Positions 6,785 to 47,540 of a DNA stretch of 64,000 bases are shown piece after piece; the first letter of the stretch is position 1; each line of letters opens with the position of its first letter. The notes beneath the pieces are model-generated. The model searched no databases. It saw only the letters and a list, made by a program, of their open reading frames with translations, and was not told the DNA's origin. The translations under genes and the position numbers were made by a program. Origin of the DNA: Solirubrobacteraceae bacterium (GTDB lineage Bacteria > Actinomycetota > Thermoleophilia > Solirubrobacterales > Solirubrobacteraceae); the NCBI GenBank assembly GCA_029263125.1, contig JAJCYD010000033.1, forward strand, positions 1 to 64,000. The letters are read 5' to 3'.

Positions 6785-8242
6785 ATGCGCAGCCTGTTCA
6801 CCCGCCTGCTGACCGGGGGCGCCGCGTACCAGGCTTCGAGCATCGCGTCGGCGGTGCTCGCGCTCGTCACCCTGCCGCTCTACACGCGGGCGTTGACGAC
6901 GGCGGATTTCGGCATCGCCGAGACGCTGCTGACCTTCATCATCCTGGCGTCGATCCTGCTGCGACTCGGTCTGGGGGAGGCGTTCGTGCGCTATTACCAC
7001 GCGCACGAGGCGGGAACTGAGCGCGATCGCCTCGCCGCCACGACGGTCGCGGCCGTGCTGGGGATCACGACCGCCGCGGCGCTCGTGCTCGGGGCCGCGG
7101 CCGGCCCGCTGAGCACGCTGCTGCTCGGCTTCGAGGATGCCGGGATCCTGCGCATCGGCCTGCTCGGGCTGTGGGCGTTCACGAACCTCGAGATCGCCTA
7201 TGCGCTGCTGCGCGTCGAGGAGCGCCGGCGGGCCTACCTGCTGGCGTCGCTGGCCAACGTCCTGCTGACCGTGGGGCTGACGGTCACGCTCGTCGTCGTG
7301 CTCGACACGGGCGCGCGCGGCTACCTGGCCGGCAACTACGTCGGGTCGACGGTCGTCCTGCTCGCGCTGTGGTGGACGCTGCACGACCGCCTCGGCGGAC
7401 AGGTGCCGGGTCCCCGCGTCGCGCTCGCGCCGCTGCTGCGCTTCGGCGTGCCGACCGTCCCCGCCGACGCGACGGTCTTCGCGCTCAACGTCATCGACCG
7501 GGCCTACCTCCTGCGCACGCAGAGCGCCGCTGCGGCCGGGCTGTTCGCGCTGTCGGTGAAGCTCGCGACCGCGGTGATCCTCGCGGTGCGCGGCTTTCAG
7601 CTCGCGTGGCCGCCGCTGGTCTACTCGATCACCGACGACGAGCGCGCGCGGCGCTTCTACGCCGTCGTCACGACGTGGTTCGTCGTCGTCGCGGGACTCG
7701 TGGTCGCGGGCTTGACGCTGCTGGGCCGCTGGGTCGTTCGGCTGCTCGCCGCGCCGGAGTACTTCGAGGCGCACGAGGCGCTGCCGTGGGTCGCGCTCGG
7801 GTGGGCGATGTACGGGTTGTTTCTCGTGCTCGTGACGATCGGCGGCCGCGCGGGCGTCACGACGCGCAACTTCCCCGCGGCGCTGGCGGGCGTCGTGGTC
7901 AACGTCGCGGTGCTCGTGGTCCTCGTCGAGCCGTTGGGGATCGCGGGCGCCGGCATCGCGCTCGTCGCGTCGTACGCGGTGATGCTCGTCGTCCTGCACC
8001 TGCTGACGCGGCGCCTGTTCAGCGTCTCGTTTGAGTGGGGGCGCCTGGCGCACGCGGTCGGCGTGCTGGCGGGCATCGCGGTCGCGGGGGAGCTCCTGCT
8101 GCCGACGGCGGGCCTGCAAGGGTTCGTGCTGCGCGCGCTGGCGCTCGCCGCGATCCCGGTCGCGCTGCTGGGCACGGGCTTCATGCGCCCCGAGGAGCGA
8201 GCGGGGCTGGCGGGGCTCGCCCGTCGCCGGCGGGCAGCTTGA
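6785..8242 (+). CDS. Polysaccharide flippase (Wzx-like, MOP superfamily)
   Basis: 485 residues from ATG 6785, supported by TAGCGT seven bases upstream. The protein has about 12-14 hydrophobic segments across its length. It starts with the typical GGAAYQASSIASAVLALVTLPLYTR helix and TTADFGIAETL, the pattern of oligosaccharide flippases. It would move undecaprenyl-linked glycan units across the membrane. It sits among glycosyltransferases. A piece of its 3' end (8053-8136) is repeated at 11462-11545. Confidence 0.88.
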   Translation: MRSLFTRLLTGGAAYQASSIASAVLALVTLPLYTRALTTADFGIAETLLTFIILASILLRLGLGEAFVRYYHAHEAGTERDRLAATTVAAVLGITTAAALVLGAAAGPLSTLLLGFEDAGILRIGLLGLWAFTNLEIAYALLRVEERRRAYLLASLANVLLTVGLTVTLVVVLDTGARGYLAGNYVGSTVVLLALWWTLHDRLGGQVPGPRVALAPLLRFGVPTVPADATVFALNVIDRAYLLRTQSAAAAGLFALSVKLATAVILAVRGFQLAWPPLVYSITDDERARRFYAVVTTWFVVVAGLVVAGLTLLGRWVVRLLAAPEYFEAHEALPWVALGWAMYGLFLVLVTIGGRAGVTTRNFPAALAGVVVNVAVLVVLVEPLGIAGAGIALVASYAVMLVVLHLLTRRLFSVSFEWGRLAHAVGVLAGIAVAGELLLPTAGLQGFVLRALALAAIPVALLGTGFMRPEERAGLAGLARRRRAA

Positions 8243-8246
8243 TCGC

Positions 8247-9182
8247 CTACAGACGCCGTCCGCGGTTGTGCTCGGACGCCGCCTCGCGCAGGCCCTCGCC
8301 GCGCGACGGACGCAGCGTCGCGGTGACGTGGCGCCAGTAGCGCCGGGCGTCGTGGCGCGGGAGGCCCAGCGCGGCGAGCGAGCGCATCGCGTAGGTGAAA
8401 GCCGTCAGCAGCCGCACCGCCCACGCCGCCGGAGGGCTGTGATGCTTGCGCATGTACAGGTCACGGTTGCGCGACAGCTCGACGATCCGCCTCTCGGGCA
8501 CCGCTCCCGTCGAGAGCTGCTCATGGTGGATCGCGGCGGCGGCGGGCACGTACAGCGTCCGCCAGCCCGCGTCGCGCAGGCGCTTGCAGAAATCGACCTC
8601 GTCGGAGTAGACGAAGAACGCGGGATCAAACCAGCCGATCTGCTCGGCCGCCTCGCGGCGGACCAGCAGGGCAGCGGACTGCGCCCAGTCGATGTCGCGG
8701 GTGGTGTCACCGCGGCTCTGCACGGTGAAGCGGCGATGCAGGAACAGCGCCCCGACGAGCGCCGTCAGCGGGGTCGGGAAGCGCCACGCGGAAGCCTGGC
8801 GCCGGCCGTCGGGACGCAGCAGCCGGGCGCCGGCGGCGGCGGCGTCATCGCGCTCGTGCAGCGCGGCGTGCAGCGCCGCGGTCGCGCCGGGCTGAAGCTC
8901 AGAGTCCTCGTTGAGCAGCAGGCAGTAGCGCCCGGACGCGCGCTGCAGCAGATCGGAGTCGTTCTCGCCCTTGCCGCGGCGGCGCTCCAGGAGGATCAGC
9001 TGCGTCGTCGCGGGGTGTCCGCGTGCGGCGCCTGCCGACCCGTCGCCCGAGGCGTTGTCGAGCACGAGCACCTCGGTCTCGAAGTCCAGCGTGCGCTGCT
9101 CGGCGGCGATCGCATCTAGGCACCGAAGCAGCAGCTCACGCTGCTCGGTGTTCACGACGCAGAAGGAGAGCTCCACCGCCAC
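8247..9182 (-). CDS. Family 2 glycosyltransferase (rhamnosyltransferase-like)
   Basis: 311 residues from GTG 9182, chosen because TATCGT (9191-9196, minus strand) lies eight bases upstream; the frame is open further 5'. The GT-A fold is clear: FCVVNTEQRELLLRCL, VLVLDNASGDGS, GRYCLLLNEDSEL (the DxD position reads NEDSE), then the FVYSDEVDFCKRLRDAGW acceptor motif typical of GT2 rhamnosyltransferases. It converges with the flippase gene, leaving four bases between the stops. A 43-bp piece (9078-9120) reappears at 11546-11588. Confidence 0.82.
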   Translation of the reverse strand: MAVELSFCVVNTEQRELLLRCLDAIAAEQRTLDFETEVLVLDNASGDGSAGAARGHPATTQLILLERRRGKGENDSDLLQRASGRYCLLLNEDSELQPGATAALHAALHERDDAAAAGARLLRPDGRRQASAWRFPTPLTALVGALFLHRRFTVQSRGDTTRDIDWAQSAALLVRREAAEQIGWFDPAFFVYSDEVDFCKRLRDAGWRTLYVPAAAAIHHEQLSTGAVPERRIVELSRNRDLYMRKHHSPPAAWAVRLLTAFTYAMRSLAALGLPRHDARRYWRHVTATLRPSRGEGLREAASEHNRGRRL

Positions 9183-9370
9183 AGGCGGCGACGATACTTC
9201 GCGGCCCCCGGCACGATCTTCGAAGTAGGTCCTTACCGGTGCGTCGTGCGGGCGTTCAGAGATGCAGGACAGAACCTCTCGAACAGGCAACCCCGTCGTG
9301 AGGCGGGCGCGCAACACCAGGGACCTCACGCGATGAGTCCGCCCAGTCGCCGCAGGAGGCAACACTCGAT

Positions 9371-9802
9371 ATGAAGTGCTTCACGAAAACCGCCGCTCTG
9401 ACCGCCGTGCTCGCCCTGGCAGCCGTTCCCGCGTTCGCGCTTCCGCCGCAGGCGCAGGTGCCGACGAACCAGGGCACAGCACACATGCCCGACAACCCGG
9501 GATCGCAGGGCGCCGCCAATCGCCCGGCCACGCCGGGGCCCAACGCAAGCGCGAAGTCCAAGGGCAAGGCCTACGGCAAGCTCTGCGCCGACCAGAGCAA
9601 GAAGCACGTCAAGGGGACCAAGGGCACGCCGTTCAGCGTCTGCGTCACCGCGATGGCCAAGCTCGCCAGCGAGCAGACGAAGTCGCCGCGCAACGCCTGC
9701 AAGTCGGAGAGCAAGAAGCACGTGAAGGGCACGAAGGGCACGCCCTTCAGCCGCTGCGTCAAGGCCGGCGCGAAGCTGCTGAAGGACAAGGCCGACGACT
9801 GA
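9371..9802 (+). CDS. Small secreted protein with two cysteine repeats
   Basis: 143 residues. ATG 9371 is preceded by AGGAGG (9354-9359). Residues 1-23 form a signal peptide (MKCFTKTAALTAVLALAAVP then AFA). The mature part has a Pro/Asn-rich linker and two copies of a unit: C-x6-KKHVKGTKGTPFS-x-C near residues 74-95 and again near 114-135. Each unit has one Cys at either end, suggesting one disulfide per unit. I know of no assigned function; small proteins with this KGTKGTPFS repeat seem characteristic of this bacterial group. A strong hairpin follows the gene. Confidence 0.75.
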   Translation: MKCFTKTAALTAVLALAAVPAFALPPQAQVPTNQGTAHMPDNPGSQGAANRPATPGPNASAKSKGKAYGKLCADQSKKHVKGTKGTPFSVCVTAMAKLASEQTKSPRNACKSESKKHVKGTKGTPFSRCVKAGAKLLKDKADD

Positions 9803-9858: not shown

Positions 9859-9946
9859 GGCGCGTTAAGCTCGGTGCGGTCCACGGAGATCAGGCTGCCA
9901 AAGGTCCTGACTTTCGGAGCACTGCCGCGTTGTCGATGAAGAGTGC

Positions 9947-11452
9947 ATGCACACGCTGAGCGCCTCACCTGCCAGCCGCGCCGTACGTCCGCCGGGCGTC
10001 ACGTTCCGGCTGGCCTCCGACGAGCGCTTGGCCCGCTGGGCGGCCGACGGTCGCGATGGGGCGATGGCGGCGATCTTCGAGCGCCATCACCAGGCGCTGC
10101 ACCGCTACTGCCATTCGATTCTCGCCAACGAGAGCGACGCCGCGGACGCGTTGCAGAACACCATGATCAAGGCGCTGCGCTCGCTGCCGGGCGAGACGCG
10201 CCGGATCGCGCTGAAGCCGTGGCTGTACCGGATCGCCCACAACGAGTCGATCTCGATGCTTCGAGCGCGGCGGCCCGAGGACGATCTGGACTCCGCGATC
10301 CATGTCAGCGACACGGCCGCCTCGGGTCGCGTCGAATCCCGCGAGCGGCTGCGGGAGCTGACCGGCGATCTCGGCGAGCTGACCGAGCGCCAGCGCGGCG
10401 CACTGTTGATGCGCGAGCTTGGCGGGCTCGAGTTCGAGGACGTGGCCGCTGTGCTGTCGACGACCCCGTCGGCGGTCAAGCAGTGCGTCTACGAGGCGCG
10501 ACGCGCGCTTCAGTCGATGCAGGAGGGCCGCGCGATGGACTGTGAGGTCATTCGCCGCACGATCTCCGACGGCGACAAGCGCATGCTGCGCGGCATGCGG
10601 ATGCGCGGGCACCTGCGCTCGTGTGCGGGCTGCCGCGATTTCGAGGCGGCGCTGCACCGGCGTCCCGAGCAGCTCGGCGCGCTGATCCCGCCGCTGCCGG
10701 TCGCGGCTGCCGCGGCGATGCTGCACAGCATCCTTGGCGGCGCGGGAGCGGGAGGCGGAAGCGGTGGTGGAGGTCTGCTTGCCGGTCTCGTCGGGTCGGC
10801 CAAGGCGACGACGACGCTGTCGCTGGGATCGAAGGCCGTCGCTGTCGTCGCTGTCGTCGCCGTCGGCGCGACGTTGACTGGCGGCGCGGTGTACGTCGCG
10901 CCCGAACGCGGCAAGGCCAGTCCGGAGCGCCCGGAGGCGTCCTCGCAACGCGCGCTCGACGCGGGCACCGTCGCGGCGCAGAGGGCGGCAGTGTCGCCGG
11001 TCAACGCCGCGCGCCGCGCGCGATCAAGCGCAACAGCGACGAGCACGCCAGGCCTCGTGAAGACCACGACGGTGCCTGGTGCCGCCGCTCGGTCGGGCAT
11101 CCCGGGCGGCATGCCCGCGGGCATTCCTCGCGGCAAGCCCGCAGGGACACCGGGGCGCAGGCCGTCGAGCACGCCGGCCGGCAAGCCAGCCGGCACCCCC
11201 GGCACCCCCGGCACAAAGCCGTCCTCGACTCCCGGCGCCAAGCCCGCGGGAACGCCGAGCGCCAAGCCCGTCAGCCCTTCCGCCGGCGCGCCATCTGCAA
11301 AGCCCACGGTTGCGCCGCCGGGCGCCAAGCCGGACACGATGCCCGTCACCGTGAGCCCCGGTGCCGCAATGCCGGCGCTGCCGGCGACGACCGGCGACCG
11401 TGGTCCCGGCCGTCGGGCCGCGGTCCCGGCCGTCGCACCTGACGGTCCCTGA
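9947..11452 (+). CDS. ECF sigma factor fused to a ZAS zinc finger, membrane helix and repeat tail
   Basis: 501 residues. Residues 40-110 are sigma region 2 (AAIFERHHQALHRYCHSIL, DAADALQNTMIKALRSLP) and residues 140-195 are region 4 (LTERQRGALLMRELGGL and a VAAVLSTTPSAVKQ HTH). A ZAS-type zinc motif follows: C199, H222, C226, C229 (HLRSCAGC). A Gly-rich linker leads to one membrane helix at about 294-318. The outer tail is a Gly/Pro/Lys repeat of GKPAGTP-like units to residue 501. A separate anti-sigma factor is absent nearby. The protein is therefore a sigma factor carrying its own anti-sigma-like finger and anchor; release by proteolysis is a plausible but unproven mechanism. ATG 9947 lacks a clear ribosome site. 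Confidence 0.85.
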   Translation: MHTLSASPASRAVRPPGVTFRLASDERLARWAADGRDGAMAAIFERHHQALHRYCHSILANESDAADALQNTMIKALRSLPGETRRIALKPWLYRIAHNESISMLRARRPEDDLDSAIHVSDTAASGRVESRERLRELTGDLGELTERQRGALLMRELGGLEFEDVAAVLSTTPSAVKQCVYEARRALQSMQEGRAMDCEVIRRTISDGDKRMLRGMRMRGHLRSCAGCRDFEAALHRRPEQLGALIPPLPVAAAAAMLHSILGGAGAGGGSGGGGLLAGLVGSAKATTTLSLGSKAVAVVAVVAVGATLTGGAVYVAPERGKASPERPEASSQRALDAGTVAAQRAAVSPVNAARRARSSATATSTPGLVKTTTVPGAAARSGIPGGMPAGIPRGKPAGTPGRRPSSTPAGKPAGTPGTPGTKPSSTPGAKPAGTPSAKPVSPSAGAPSAKPTVAPPGAKPDTMPVTVSPGAAMPALPATTGDRGPGRRAAVPAVAPDGP

Positions 11453-11461
11453 TTGTCGCTG

Positions 11462-11588
11462 CGCGGTCGGCGTGCTGGCGGGCATTGCGGTCGCGGGGGA
11501 GCTCCCGCTGCCGACGGCGGGCCTGCAAGGGTTCGTGCTGCGCGCCTCGAATTCCAGCGTGCGCTGCTCGGCGGCGACCGCATCCAGG
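11462..11588 (+). pseudogene. Chimeric remnant of flippase and GT2 sequence
   Basis: Bases 11462-11545 match 8053-8136 (flippase 3' region) with two mismatches in 84. Bases 11546-11588 match 9078-9120 (GT2 gene) with three mismatches in 43. Orientation and order are the same as in the parent copies, so the remnant equals a duplicated parent segment with about 941 bases removed between them. It lies between the sigma-factor stop and the 3' end of the next gene and encodes nothing intact. Confidence 0.85.
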
Positions 11589-11590
11589 CC

Positions 11591-12490
11591 TCATGGCTCG
11601 CGCGGTCCGAGGTAGATCCTGTACGGCCCGGCGTACTGCGTCACGCTGTCGAAGACGACTAGGCGGCGGCCGAACATCGCCAGGTGCGCCGGCGCCCGGT
11701 TGGGCCGGGGTCCGGTCCGACGTCGGTCGGAGCGCAGGTCGCGGTAGACGATCCGCCCGTTGACGAGATAGGCGAGCGCGTCGCGGCCGAGGACGAGGCG
11801 GACCCAGTGCCGGGATCCGATGACGCGGCTGCTGCCGCAGCGCTGCACCGCGCCGTACTGCCACACCCAGCGGCCGACGCGCAGGATCGGGTCCGCGCTG
11901 TCGCCCGTTCGCGTGATCGGCTCGCAGAGGCGCCTGACGGGCTCGCGCGCGTCGGGGTTGTAGTACTCCGCCGCCTCGAGCGAAGCGCCGTCGCCGAAGA
12001 GGTACCCGGCGATCTCGGTGGCCCGGCCCGTGCTCCATTGGATGAGGAAGCGGCGCGACTGCCGTGTGTCCCCAGATCGGTTTCCGTGGGCCAGCAGCCA
12101 GTGACGTCCGACCTCGACAGACGTGGAGTCGTATGAGACTCCGGGTGGCGCCGCTACTTGGACGACCACGCCATCGGCCTCGCGCAGCACGGACAGCTTG
12201 AAATGGGATGGGGAATCCGCCGAAGCAGGCGTCCAGCAGGTGAGGGCGACGACGCCGGCACCCATGGCCCCGGGTCGGCACCCCTCGGGCACGGTGTAGG
12301 CGCGGGCGGGCTGACCGGTCCTGCGCACGCGCAGGCTCGTCGAGCTGAGGAGATAGGCCATGCCGCCGGACTTCGCCGAGGTCACCGGCGGCGCGTCGGA
12401 TGTCGCCAGGCGCTTGAGGTGCAGCGGCGATGCGTACGCGGGCACGGCACCGAAGGTCGCGATCGCCACGGCGAGGAGGAAGGTGCGCAC
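11591..12490 (-). CDS. Secreted hypothetical protein
   Basis: 299 residues from GTG 12490. Residues 1-20 (MRTFLLAVAIATFGAVPAYA) form a clean signal peptide with an A-x-A cleavage site. The mature protein is beta-rich with regular hydrophobic/Trp spacing (GRHWLLAHGNRSG, RFLIQWSTGRATEI, GRWVWQYGAVQRC), suggesting an extracellular beta-propeller-like or lectin-like fold. C-x-n-C pairs may form disulfides. No family recognised. It converges with the sigma-factor gene, and its stop lies two bases from the chimeric remnant. Its position inside the glycan locus suggests a cell-surface role, by context only. Confidence 0.65.
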   Translation of the reverse strand: MRTFLLAVAIATFGAVPAYASPLHLKRLATSDAPPVTSAKSGGMAYLLSSTSLRVRRTGQPARAYTVPEGCRPGAMGAGVVALTCWTPASADSPSHFKLSVLREADGVVVQVAAPPGVSYDSTSVEVGRHWLLAHGNRSGDTRQSRRFLIQWSTGRATEIAGYLFGDGASLEAAEYYNPDAREPVRRLCEPITRTGDSADPILRVGRWVWQYGAVQRCGSSRVIGSRHWVRLVLGRDALAYLVNGRIVYRDLRSDRRRTGPRPNRAPAHLAMFGRRLVVFDSVTQYAGPYRIYLGPREP

Positions 12491-45674: not shown

Positions 45675-47540
45675 GTGAGCTTTCGCAATCGTCTGGGGCT
45701 GTTCTTCGTCCTGATCGTGATCGTGCCCATGATGGCCGTCGCGGTGTTGCTGTTCGGCCTCGTCGGCGAGAGCGAGAACTCGATGAGCCAAGCGGATGCG
45801 GGTGCGCGTCAGGAGGTCGCCCAGAACCTGCTGACCTCGCGCCAAGACGCGGCGCAGGAGGCGCTCAAGGCCGTCAAGGCCGCCGATGGCGGCGCCCTGC
45901 TCGACGAGGACGGCGATCGCGCCCGCGCGCGCGCGAAGAAGCTTGTGGAGGCACGTGGCATCGAGCGGCTTGTCGTTACGACCGGTGACAAGGTCACGCT
46001 CGCCGTCGGCGACAAGACGGCGATCGCGCCGGCCTTCCTGAAGCTCGACTCGACGACCGGCACGGACGGCGAGCTCGGCCTGTCGCTGATCGACGCCGAC
46101 ACCTACGCCGGCCAGGTCAAGCAGCTCACCGGCATGGACGTCGTCGTACGAAACGGCGGCAAGGTGCTCGCCAGCACGTTCTCCGACGCGCTCACCAAGA
46201 CGATCGACGCCGGCGCGCAGGGCAGCGTCGACCTCGAGGGCGACAGCTACCAGCTCGACGCGCTGCAGGTCAGCGCCTTCCCCGGACAAAAGATCAGCGT
46301 CACGACGCTCAGCCGGCCGCGGGCCTCCTCGGGCGACGTTCGCGACGGGCGCATCGTCATCGGCGCGATCCTGGCTGGCTTCCTGCTCCTCGCAATCGTC
46401 TGCGCGGTGCTCGTCTCGCGCTCGCTGCAGCAGCAGCTCTCGGGCTTCCTGCAGGCCGCCCGCCGGCTTGCCGGCGGCGACTTCTCCGCGCAGGTGCAGA
46501 CCGTCGGCAAGGACGAGTTCGCCGGCCTCGGCGAGGAGTTCAACAAGATGTCCGAGGAGCTCGAGCGCCGCCTCGTCGAGCTGTCGCAGGAACGACAGCG
46601 CGTGCAGTACTCGATGCGCCGCCTGGGCGAGGCGCTAGCGTCCAAGCTTGACCGCGACGCACTGCTGGAGATCGTCGTGAGGACCGCGGTCGACGGCGTC
46701 GCCGCCGACGCGGGACGCGCCTACGTCAGAGGCCCCGACCGCGTCACCCTTCAGGAGCGCGCCAGCGCGGGCAACATGAATGGCCTCGAGACGGCGGTGC
46801 GTTCGGTCGAGGCCGATGCGATGAGCTCCGGCGGACCCCGCGAAATGTCCTCCGGCGACACGAGCGCGATGGCGCACCCGCTGCCCTCGACCGATGGGAC
46901 CCTCGGCGCCGCCGGCGTCGTCTCCGTCGCGCGCACCGGCCGCACGTTCACCCAGAGCGAACGCGAGCTCTTCCACTACCTGGCCAGCCAGGCGGGCCGC
47001 TCGATGGAGAACGTCGACCGTCACGAGACCGCGACGCGCGAGTCGGTCACCGACGACCTCACCGGGCTCTCCAACCGCCGCGCGTTCGACGACGCGATCT
47101 CCAGTGAGGTCGAGCGCGCCAAGCGCTTCGGCACGACGCTCGGGCTCGTGCTGATCGACCTCGACGACTTCAAGCACGTCAACGACACCTACGGCCATCC
47201 CCAGGGCGACGTCGTCCTGCGCGAGGTTGCCCGCGTGCTGCGCGACAGCTCGCGCGAGATCGATCACGCCGCCCGCTACGGCGGGGAGGAGCTCGCGCTC
47301 GTGTTGCCCGGAACGGACATCGACGGCGCCGTGAACTTCGCCGAACGCGTGCGCGAGCGCATCCAGACGCTGCGCATCCCGCGCCTGGACGGCGCGGGCG
47401 ACATCCAGATCACGGCGAGCTGTGGGGTGGCGGCCGTGCCGCAGACGCCGGCCGATCACAGCGCGCTCCTCGCCGCCGCCGACGGGGCGCTCTACCAGGC
47501 CAAGCGCAGCGGAAAGAACAAGTCCGTGCGCGCTAGGTAG
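45675..47540 (+). CDS. Membrane diguanylate cyclase (sensor-HAMP-GAF-GGDEF)
   Basis: 621 residues from GTG 45675, eight bases after TACGCT (45661-45666). Membrane helices at about 8-28 and 228-255 bracket an outer sensor region, followed by a HAMP domain (SLQQQLSGFLQAARRLAGGD). A GAF-like domain lies at about 330-450. The GGDEF domain at 460-615 has DDLTGLSNRR, LVLIDLDDFKHVNDTYGH and RYGGEELALVL. The active site is GGEEL rather than GGEEF. It should make cyclic-di-GMP in response to an external cue. No inhibitory I-site RxxD is seen in the usual position. Confidence 0.9.
   Translation: MSFRNRLGLFFVLIVIVPMMAVAVLLFGLVGESENSMSQADAGARQEVAQNLLTSRQDAAQEALKAVKAADGGALLDEDGDRARARAKKLVEARGIERLVVTTGDKVTLAVGDKTAIAPAFLKLDSTTGTDGELGLSLIDADTYAGQVKQLTGMDVVVRNGGKVLASTFSDALTKTIDAGAQGSVDLEGDSYQLDALQVSAFPGQKISVTTLSRPRASSGDVRDGRIVIGAILAGFLLLAIVCAVLVSRSLQQQLSGFLQAARRLAGGDFSAQVQTVGKDEFAGLGEEFNKMSEELERRLVELSQERQRVQYSMRRLGEALASKLDRDALLEIVVRTAVDGVAADAGRAYVRGPDRVTLQERASAGNMNGLETAVRSVEADAMSSGGPREMSSGDTSAMAHPLPSTDGTLGAAGVVSVARTGRTFTQSERELFHYLASQAGRSMENVDRHETATRESVTDDLTGLSNRRAFDDAISSEVERAKRFGTTLGLVLIDLDDFKHVNDTYGHPQGDVVLREVARVLRDSSREIDHAARYGGEELALVLPGTDIDGAVNFAERVRERIQTLRIPRLDGAGDIQITASCGVAAVPQTPADHSALLAAADGALYQAKRSGKNKSVRAR

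What the first reader, a model, noticed from the sequence alone, without database searches (positions are those of the whole stretch)
9947..11452. Membrane-tethered sigma factor with its own ZAS finger and repeat tail
One protein carries ECF sigma regions 2 and 4, a ZAS motif (C199, H222, C226, C229), one membrane helix and a 180-residue Gly/Pro/Lys repeat outside. Sigma and anti-sigma are usually separate proteins. The outer tail could feel the cell wall. It sits in a glycan locus.
Basis: partly seen in the sequence, partly recalled or inferred. Interest (0 to 1): 0.6.

Follow-up and report, generated by a model that had tools for sequence, protein, structure and literature searches.

The report
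Self-inhibited membrane sigma factor with private regulon
A soil bacterium's gene switch carries its own brake and probably sits in the cell membrane, and its relatives share a matching promoter with neighbouring secreted-protein genes, some of them also behind an RNA sensor of a kind named for the signal molecule cyclic-di-GMP.

Summary
Window 9947-11452 (+) is one intact 501-aa gene: ECF sigma regions 2 and 4, a ZAS zinc motif (C199/H222/C226/C229), one weak membrane segment and a 183-residue low-complexity tail. It is no frameshift: the order recurs in dozens of homologues, and the four zinc ligands are invariant in 33 of 33 aligned. Sigma/anti-sigma fusions as such are known (ECF48, ECF52, ECF53); this protein lies in a separate Thermoleophilia clade with no carbohydrate-binding module. 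The membrane segment is marginal, and the outside tail is inferred.

The larger result lies outside the coordinates. The sigma gene and the secreted-protein gene 145 bp upstream (9371-9802) share an ECF-type bipartite promoter, TAGnTCCTKAC-N16-CGTT, found at only three places in this 3.75-Mb genome, all in front of such genes. Relatives keep the sigma beside one or two unrecognised secreted families. Many secreted genes carry a c-di-GMP-I-GGC riboswitch (RF03167); all three found in this genome lie beside a fused sigma. A sister sigma clade has its own promoter. Best reading: a tethered, self-inhibited sigma, released by proteolysis, drives itself and its secreted neighbours. Proteolysis, signal and riboswitch ligand are untested.

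The parts
9947..11452 (+). fused ECF sigma / anti-sigma gene, 501 aa
10073..10273 (+). sigma-70 region 2 (aa 43-109)
   Evidence: Pfam PF04542 8.3e-14; pLDDT mostly over 90
10370..10510 (+). sigma-70 region 4 (aa 142-188)
   Evidence: Pfam PF08281 5.9e-9
10541..10633 (+). ZAS-type motif C199-H222xxxC226xxC229
   Evidence: invariant in 33 of 33; helical, pLDDT over 90
10832..10900 (+). probable single membrane segment (aa 296-318)
   Evidence: hydropathy 2.18, 0.005 of shuffles as high; energy +0.85; not modelled as helix
10901..11449 (+). 183-residue low-complexity tail, probably extracytoplasmic
   Evidence: composition; mean pLDDT about 36-60 by 10-residue block
9901..9931 (+). predicted ECF-type promoter of the sigma gene (AAGGTCCTGAC-N16-CGTT)
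9226..9256 (+). predicted ECF-type promoter of the secreted-protein gene (TAGGTCCTTAC-N16-CGTT)
9277..9355 (+). c-di-GMP-I-GGC (RF03167) aptamer-like leader, degenerate (34.1 bits, gathering 59)
   Evidence: E 1.3e-6 in 251 nt; 4.6e-6 in the genome search; aligned with 19 others
9371..9802 (+). secreted 143-aa protein with two Cys-flanked KKHVKGTKGTPFS repeats (family c2)
   Evidence: signal-peptide-like start read by eye; 20 matches in 17 of 61 genomes; no domain above cut-off in Pfam or NCBIfam

Best explanation
A membrane-tethered, self-inhibited ECF sigma factor with a small, private regulon. Sigma regions 2 and 4 lie in the cytoplasm; the ZAS helices that follow hold them away from RNA polymerase; a weak membrane helix anchors the protein; the disordered tail reaches into the wall. 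A signal on the tail starts regulated proteolysis (site-2 protease, then cytoplasmic trimming) and frees the sigma, which reads TAGnTCCTKAC-N16-CGTT in front of its own gene (positive feedback) and of the neighbouring secreted-protein gene, whose mRNA also has a c-di-GMP-I-GGC-type leader next to the ribosome-binding site. Shown by computation: domain order and conservation, co-localisation with secreted genes, shared bipartite promoter, rarity of the motif, aptamers. Inferred: inhibition by the ZAS, outside tail, proteolysis, that this sigma reads that promoter, riboswitch ligand, role of the secreted proteins.
For: Zinc ligands invariant in 33 of 33. Closest folds are ECF sigmas, several crystallised with anti-sigmas: AlgU-MucA, SigE-RseA, SigW-RsiW, SigK-RskA (names partly recalled). 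Hydrophobic peak of at least 1.6 in 49 of 56 fused ORFs against 14% of shuffles, mostly 50-70 residues after the ZAS. Motif log-likelihood 153 against 46-54 in six shuffled sets; CGTT, not used in learning it, at spacer 16 in 18 of 26. Strict promoter in 16 of 71 module upstream regions against 3 of 595 others, Fisher p 4e-14. Genus scan: 16 sites in 7 genomes (6 for the reversed pattern), 11 of the 16 just upstream of a fused sigma or secreted-family gene; in this genome 3 sites, all such (compared). Secreted families within 1 kb of a listed fused sigma: c1 20 of 35, c2 5 of 20, RF03167 16 of 93, against about 0.17, 0.08 and 0.35 expected. Sister clade has its own box, GCATCAC-N16-CGTG. M50 proteases present. 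In ECF52 SCO4117 a truncation lacking zinc finger, membrane segment and carbohydrate module activates its own gene (PMC5826349).
Against: AlphaFold2 gives no helix at the membrane segment and the insertion energy is positive. 17 of 56 homologues have hydropathy peaks reached by 5% or more of their shuffles. Many sigma upstream regions lack the motif (strict pattern present in 6 of 42, relaxed in 11 of 42), partly because other clades are in that set and some starts were called too far downstream. c2 sits by a sigma in only 5-6 of 20 matches and has an aptamer in 2 of 20. The window's aptamer is below the gathering score. Of 93 aptamers, 75 are not within 2.5 kb of a listed fused sigma. Nothing shows cleavage or binding.
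Confidence: 0.6

Rival explanations
1. The promoter shared by the sigma gene and the secreted genes is read by a different sigma or regulator, and the fused sigma is just another target gene of it.
For: The genome has 50 Sigma70_r2 matches; many fused sigmas lack the motif upstream.
Against: The site occurs 3 times in this genome, each in front of a fused sigma or the secreted gene beside one; a sister sigma clade has a different box at the same kind of place; ECF sigmas commonly autoregulate (stated in PMC5826349).
Confidence: 0.2
2. There is no membrane anchor: a soluble sigma whose ZAS senses redox or zinc, followed by a disordered cytoplasmic tail.
For: Marginal hydrophobic segment, unmodelled by AlphaFold2, below 1.6 in 7 of 56 homologues.
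Against: The hydrophobic peak stands at a similar distance after the ZAS in most homologues and beats 95% of shuffles in 39 of 56; long low-complexity tails (median 183 residues over 66 proteins); secreted partner genes.
Confidence: 0.15
3. Segments 245-263 and 297-315 form a membrane hairpin, so the tail is cytoplasmic.
For: Two hydrophobic peaks in the window protein (1.70 and 2.18); ECF48/52/53 are described with one to two membrane helices (PMC8999054).
Against: The first segment is weaker (energy 2.26), contains PPLP, and is modelled as a separate 12-residue helix.
Confidence: 0.1
4. An ordinary ECF52-type factor.
For: Same order: sigma, zinc finger, membrane segment, Pro-rich tail.
Against: No carbohydrate-binding module in this protein or in any of 33 family members scanned; a fused sigma of a large, unnamed phylum relative (L289) falls on a very long branch outside the Thermoleophilia clade.
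Confidence: 0.05

Closest known systems
ECF52 (SCO4117, Streptomyces coelicolor)
   Same: ECF sigma, zinc finger, membrane segment and Pro-rich region in one chain; autoregulation suggested
   Different: ECF52 ends in a carbohydrate-binding module and SCO4117 affects many genes; here no module, a different promoter, very few sites, secreted partners next door
ECF48 and ECF53
   Same: C-terminal fusion with zinc finger and one or two membrane helices, expected to be activated by proteolysis (PMC8999054)
   Different: Fused proteins from other parts of the phylum (L229/L243, L241, L248-L250, L289; no group label confirmed) lie outside the Thermoleophilia clade in the tree
IutY (ECF243, Pseudomonas putida)
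   Same: Membrane-bound anti-sigma fused to the sigma; released by Prc and RseP (PMC8999054)
   Different: Siderophore signalling system of a Gram-negative; sequence relation not tested
c-di-GMP-I-GGC riboswitch (RF03167)
   Same: Leaders of several partner genes score above gathering (L122 65.8, L137 64.5, L139 63.5 bits)
   Different: The window copy scores only 34.1; ligand not tested

Membership tests
ECF sigma factor | Sigma-70 regions 2 and 4, in the ECF superfamily | tested here: met
   PF04542 and PF08281 above cut-off; NCBIfam sigma70-ECF superfamily 68.8 bits against 42.9
Fused ZAS-type anti-sigma | HxxxCxxC with an upstream Cys or His, right after region 4 (motif recalled) | tested here: met
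   C199, H222, C226, C229 invariant in 33 of 33
Fused ZAS-type anti-sigma | Match to Pfam zf-HC2 (PF13490) | tested here: not met
   No match in the window protein; 1 of 33 members matches
Membrane-tethered sigma | One transmembrane helix | tested here: inconclusive
   Hydropathy supports it, energy marginal, AlphaFold2 does not
ECF52 | C-terminal carbohydrate-binding module | tested here: not met
   No Pfam domain after region 4 in this protein
ECF52 | Phylogenetic grouping with SCO4117 | not tested
   SCO4117 itself was not at hand; L289 from an unnamed large phylum relative is only a stand-in
ECF48 / ECF53 | Match to the group's own model | not testable with these tools
   No ECF-group models in the libraries
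Activation by regulated proteolysis | Cleavage by site-1 and site-2 proteases | not testable with these tools
   M50 genes exist; cleavage needs an experiment
c-di-GMP-I-GGC riboswitch (window copy) | Covariance-model score at or above gathering (59) | tested here: not met
   34.1 bits at 9277-9355; keeps the columns invariant in the other 19
c-di-GMP-I-GGC riboswitch (relatives' leaders) | Covariance-model score at or above gathering | tested here: met
   3 of 5 leaders in 4 loci above 59 (L122, L137, one of two in L139); L134 and the second of L139 below

The most novel reading that the evidence does not exclude
A two-input circuit of Thermoleophilia: an envelope signal frees a tethered sigma that transcribes only itself and one or two secreted proteins, while a c-di-GMP-type riboswitch on the secreted protein's mRNA decides whether it is translated; the secreted protein then acts back on the sigma's tail, closing the loop outside the cell. 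The genome carries several such loops in parallel, each with its own promoter.
Probability: 0.2. Interest if true: 0.75.

Novelty: new variant of a known kind. Interest (0 to 1): 0.52.

Why it matters
Single-chain sigma/anti-sigma sensors are described in reviews, but how one is triggered and what it controls is known for very few. Here comparative genomics gives a predicted promoter, a very small predicted regulon and candidate extracellular partners, so the question becomes testable with one reporter. It would also join two signalling routes, sigma release and a c-di-GMP-class riboswitch, on one gene. My searches of the held open-access library found no paper on the combination (listings only, apart from the papers read); most subscription journals are not in it.

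Tried and rejected
Frameshift or gene-fusion artefact: rejected, as the architecture recurs in dozens of homologues and third-position G+C stays high throughout. Glycan locus as functional partner: rejected, not conserved. Known domain in the tail: none in 33 members. Sortase signal in LPATTG near the C-terminus: read by eye and dropped (no LPXTG, no following membrane segment). AlphaFold2 of the secreted protein alone: low confidence (mean pLDDT 53.8), not used. First promoter guess (single box TCCTKAC) gave 4 of 42 sigma, 0 of 16 c1, 6 of 13 c2 against 18 of 592 others; replaced by the bipartite model. Plasmid collection: 273 records match, all under 60% identity, none covering 80% of the query. 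Papers on Thermoleophilia and ECF sigmas: only unrelated papers in the listing. PMC12452182, passages read, names c-di-GMP-I-GGC only as a family member.

Limits of the counts: the fused-sigma list used for distances is the 150 rows printed ('more matches are not listed'), so the neighbour counts are lower bounds; not every one of those rows was checked to be a fused protein. The c1 count of 35 leaves out two fragment rows of the 37 (one search used all 37: aptamer within 200 bp for 23 of 37); one search compared with 28 of the 93 aptamer rows, picked by contig. One search left out 11 outgroup locus numbers. One search aligned 20 of the 22 regular-expression hits; L290 (chance) and L194 (incomplete) were dropped, and the expression finds only aptamers near its own consensus. 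One search left out locus L009 (same DNA as L137). Insertion-energy parameters were recalled from memory. The 82 tree rows are a chosen set: fused ORFs at hand plus the stand-alone sigmas I named. The motif was learned on sequences that are also in the tests; only the CGTT box is independent of the learning.

Full report
Observation. The ORF at 9947-11452 (+) encodes 501 aa. Pfam finds Sigma70_r2 at 43-109 and Sigma70_r4_2 at 142-188. The ZAS-type residues C199, H222, C226 and C229 are as stated. Third-position G+C is 0.77-0.91 along the whole ORF. The tail after residue 318 has 183 residues (A36 P35 G24 T19 S17 R14 V11 K9, net charge +16). Hydropathy peaks at 245-263 (1.70) and 297-315 (2.18). 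With recalled insertion-energy parameters the second segment scores +0.85, within the range of weaker helices of the window's own flippase (up to +1.08), the first 2.26. AlphaFold2 on a 27-row alignment models most of residues 20-110 and 130-250 well, with helices 199-208, 217-225 and 227-246 for the ZAS region; it draws nothing at 297-315 and leaves the tail unordered. Foldseek matches are ECF sigmas, among them several solved with anti-sigmas (AlgU-MucA, SigE-RseA, SigW-RsiW, SigK with its anti-sigma, BldN-RsbN).

Family. The own genome (3.75 Mb, 53 contigs) has 50 Sigma70_r2 matches and 15 protein matches to the query, the nearest paralogue with 53% identity at C1:45292-46755. All 61 genomes of the relatives search have matches at E 0.001 or better; that alone says little, since any ECF sigma can match. 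Scanning ORFs for the ZAS motif and hydropathy shows the full order in dozens of them. In 33 aligned fused proteins only 14 columns are invariant, and four of these are C199, H222, C226 and C229. In 56 distinct fused ORFs of the group, 49 have a hydropathy peak of at least 1.6 after the ZAS, against 14% of shuffles; 39 of 56 beat 95% of their shuffles. Pfam finds only sigma, HTH-like and (in 1 of 33) zf-HC2 matches. Among 246 genomes drawn from the phylum the best scores are all in the same class; fused proteins with weaker scores also occur elsewhere in the phylum. In an 82-row tree the Thermoleophilia fused proteins fall in a 60-row branch (99/95) that also takes in two stand-alone sigmas of this genome; the exceptions are L126 (own genome) and L252 (same class), which are fused but lie outside it. 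The window protein groups with the C1 paralogue and relatives in G002, G003 and G004 (100/99). Fused proteins of other families of the phylum (L289, L248-L250, L243, L229, L241, L245-L247) lie outside, with stand-alone ECFs in between. L289 has a branch of 2.85 and its place is unsure.

Neighbours. The gene 145 bp upstream (9371-9802) encodes a small protein with a signal-peptide-like start and two Cys-flanked KKHVKGTKGTPFS repeats (family c2). Around homologues I found this family again and a second, larger helical secreted family (c1: 18 genes in 12 loci, two of which, L009 and L137, carry the same genes). Pfam and NCBIfam give nothing above cut-off for the members scanned. c1 flanks the sigma on both sides in L122, L134, L135 and L139. 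In G043 the order is sigma, c1, c2. Counting against the 150 sigma places printed, c1 lies within 1 kb for 20 of 35, c2 for 5 of 20; chance gives about 0.17 and 0.08. The window's glycan genes (flippase, glycosyltransferases, sugar transferase) do not recur in the other loci.

Promoter. Upstream regions of c1, c2 and sigma genes (51 sequences, aptamers masked) gave one motif, GATAGnTCCTKACt, log-likelihood 153 against 46-54 in six shuffled sets. Aligning on it showed a second box, CGTT, 16 nt downstream: of 26, 18 at spacer 16, 1 at 15, 2 at 17. This is the layout of an ECF promoter (established knowledge). The strict pattern occurs in 16 of 71 module upstream regions (sigma 6 of 42, c1 4 of 16, c2 6 of 13) and in 3 of 595 others (p 4e-14). 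Over seven genomes of the genus it occurs 16 times (reversed-pattern control 6); by comparison, 11 of the 16 lie just upstream of a fused sigma, c1 or c2 gene. In the own genome there are three: 9226-9256, 9901-9931 and the promoter of the C1 paralogue. A sister sigma clade shows GCATCAC-N16-CGTG in front of its c1 gene (L124, L016, L198, L199; 17 nt in L200), and L201 shows it in front of the sigma gene (read by eye): box and sigma diverge together, which is what self-recognition predicts.

Riboswitch. The leaders of many c1 genes match Rfam c-di-GMP-I-GGC (RF03167): L122 65.8, L137 64.5, L139 63.5 and 53.8, L134 52.2 bits. The window's secreted gene has a degenerate copy at 9277-9355, 34.1 bits, E 1.3e-6 in 251 nt, below the gathering score of 59, so the gathering-level scan did not list it. 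Twenty aligned leaders keep 32 invariant columns, the window's included; 4 of 16 predicted pairs show changes on both sides. In 61 genomes 93 copies are found in 37 genomes; 16 lie within 1 kb and 18 within 2.5 kb of a listed fused sigma (about 0.35 expected within 1 kb), and all three of the own genome are next to a fused sigma. An aptamer lies within 200 bp of 23 of 37 c1 matches but only 2 of 20 c2 matches. Other RF03167 copies stand before, for example, a prepilin-like gene (L297) and a glycoside-hydrolase-like secreted protein (L296), judged by eye. The genome has 8 GGDEF matches, one in this window, so c-di-GMP is probably made; the ligand is taken from the family name only.

Mechanism. 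The parts fit a sensor in one chain: ZAS inhibition, membrane anchor, tail outside, release by proteolysis. The genome has M50 protease matches in 3 open frames, but so have 14 of 14 control genomes, so that is permissive, not evidence. In ECF52 SCO4117 a truncation without zinc finger, membrane segment and carbohydrate module activated the gene's own expression (PMC5826349, section 21), and proteolytic release is proposed for ECF48, ECF52 and ECF53 and shown for IutY (PMC8999054, passages). Positive feedback plus output of one secreted protein is my inference from the promoter pattern. The start codon at 9947 lies 15 nt after the -10 box (9928-9931), so the sigma mRNA is probably nearly leaderless.

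Verdict. The architecture is a known kind; the Thermoleophilia clade with its private promoter, secreted partners and riboswitch is a new variant as far as my searches reach.

Noticed in passing
window 11462-11589: A composite scar just after the sigma gene: 84 nt 98% identical to the flippase gene (8053-8136) joined to 44 nt 93% identical to 9078-9121 in the glycosyltransferase gene. It looks like a partial duplication with an internal deletion, or an assembly effect.
   Followed up: partly
window 8247-9365 (-): The glycosyltransferase ORF overlaps the promoter and aptamer of the secreted gene if it starts at 9365; codon composition favours a start at 9182, which frees the region.
   Followed up: no
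window 47046-47522 (+): GGDEF domain (2e-47), one of 8 in the genome.
   Followed up: no
L124, L016, L198-L201: A sister clade of fused sigmas has a different shared box, GCATCAC-N16-CGTG, before its secreted partner or itself.
   Followed up: partly
L136:7162-7581 (-): A different signal-peptide-like small protein beside a fused sigma in G052 also carries the promoter: partners may be more varied than two families.
   Followed up: no
L297, L296: RF03167 leaders before a prepilin-like gene and a secreted glycoside-hydrolase-like gene.
   Followed up: no
L250:921-2549 (-): A fused sigma elsewhere in the phylum has a BACON-like domain in its tail (Pfam BACON_2 1.5e-6).
   Followed up: no
window 11591-12490 (-): Predicted secreted protein of 299 aa without a Pfam match.
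   Followed up: no
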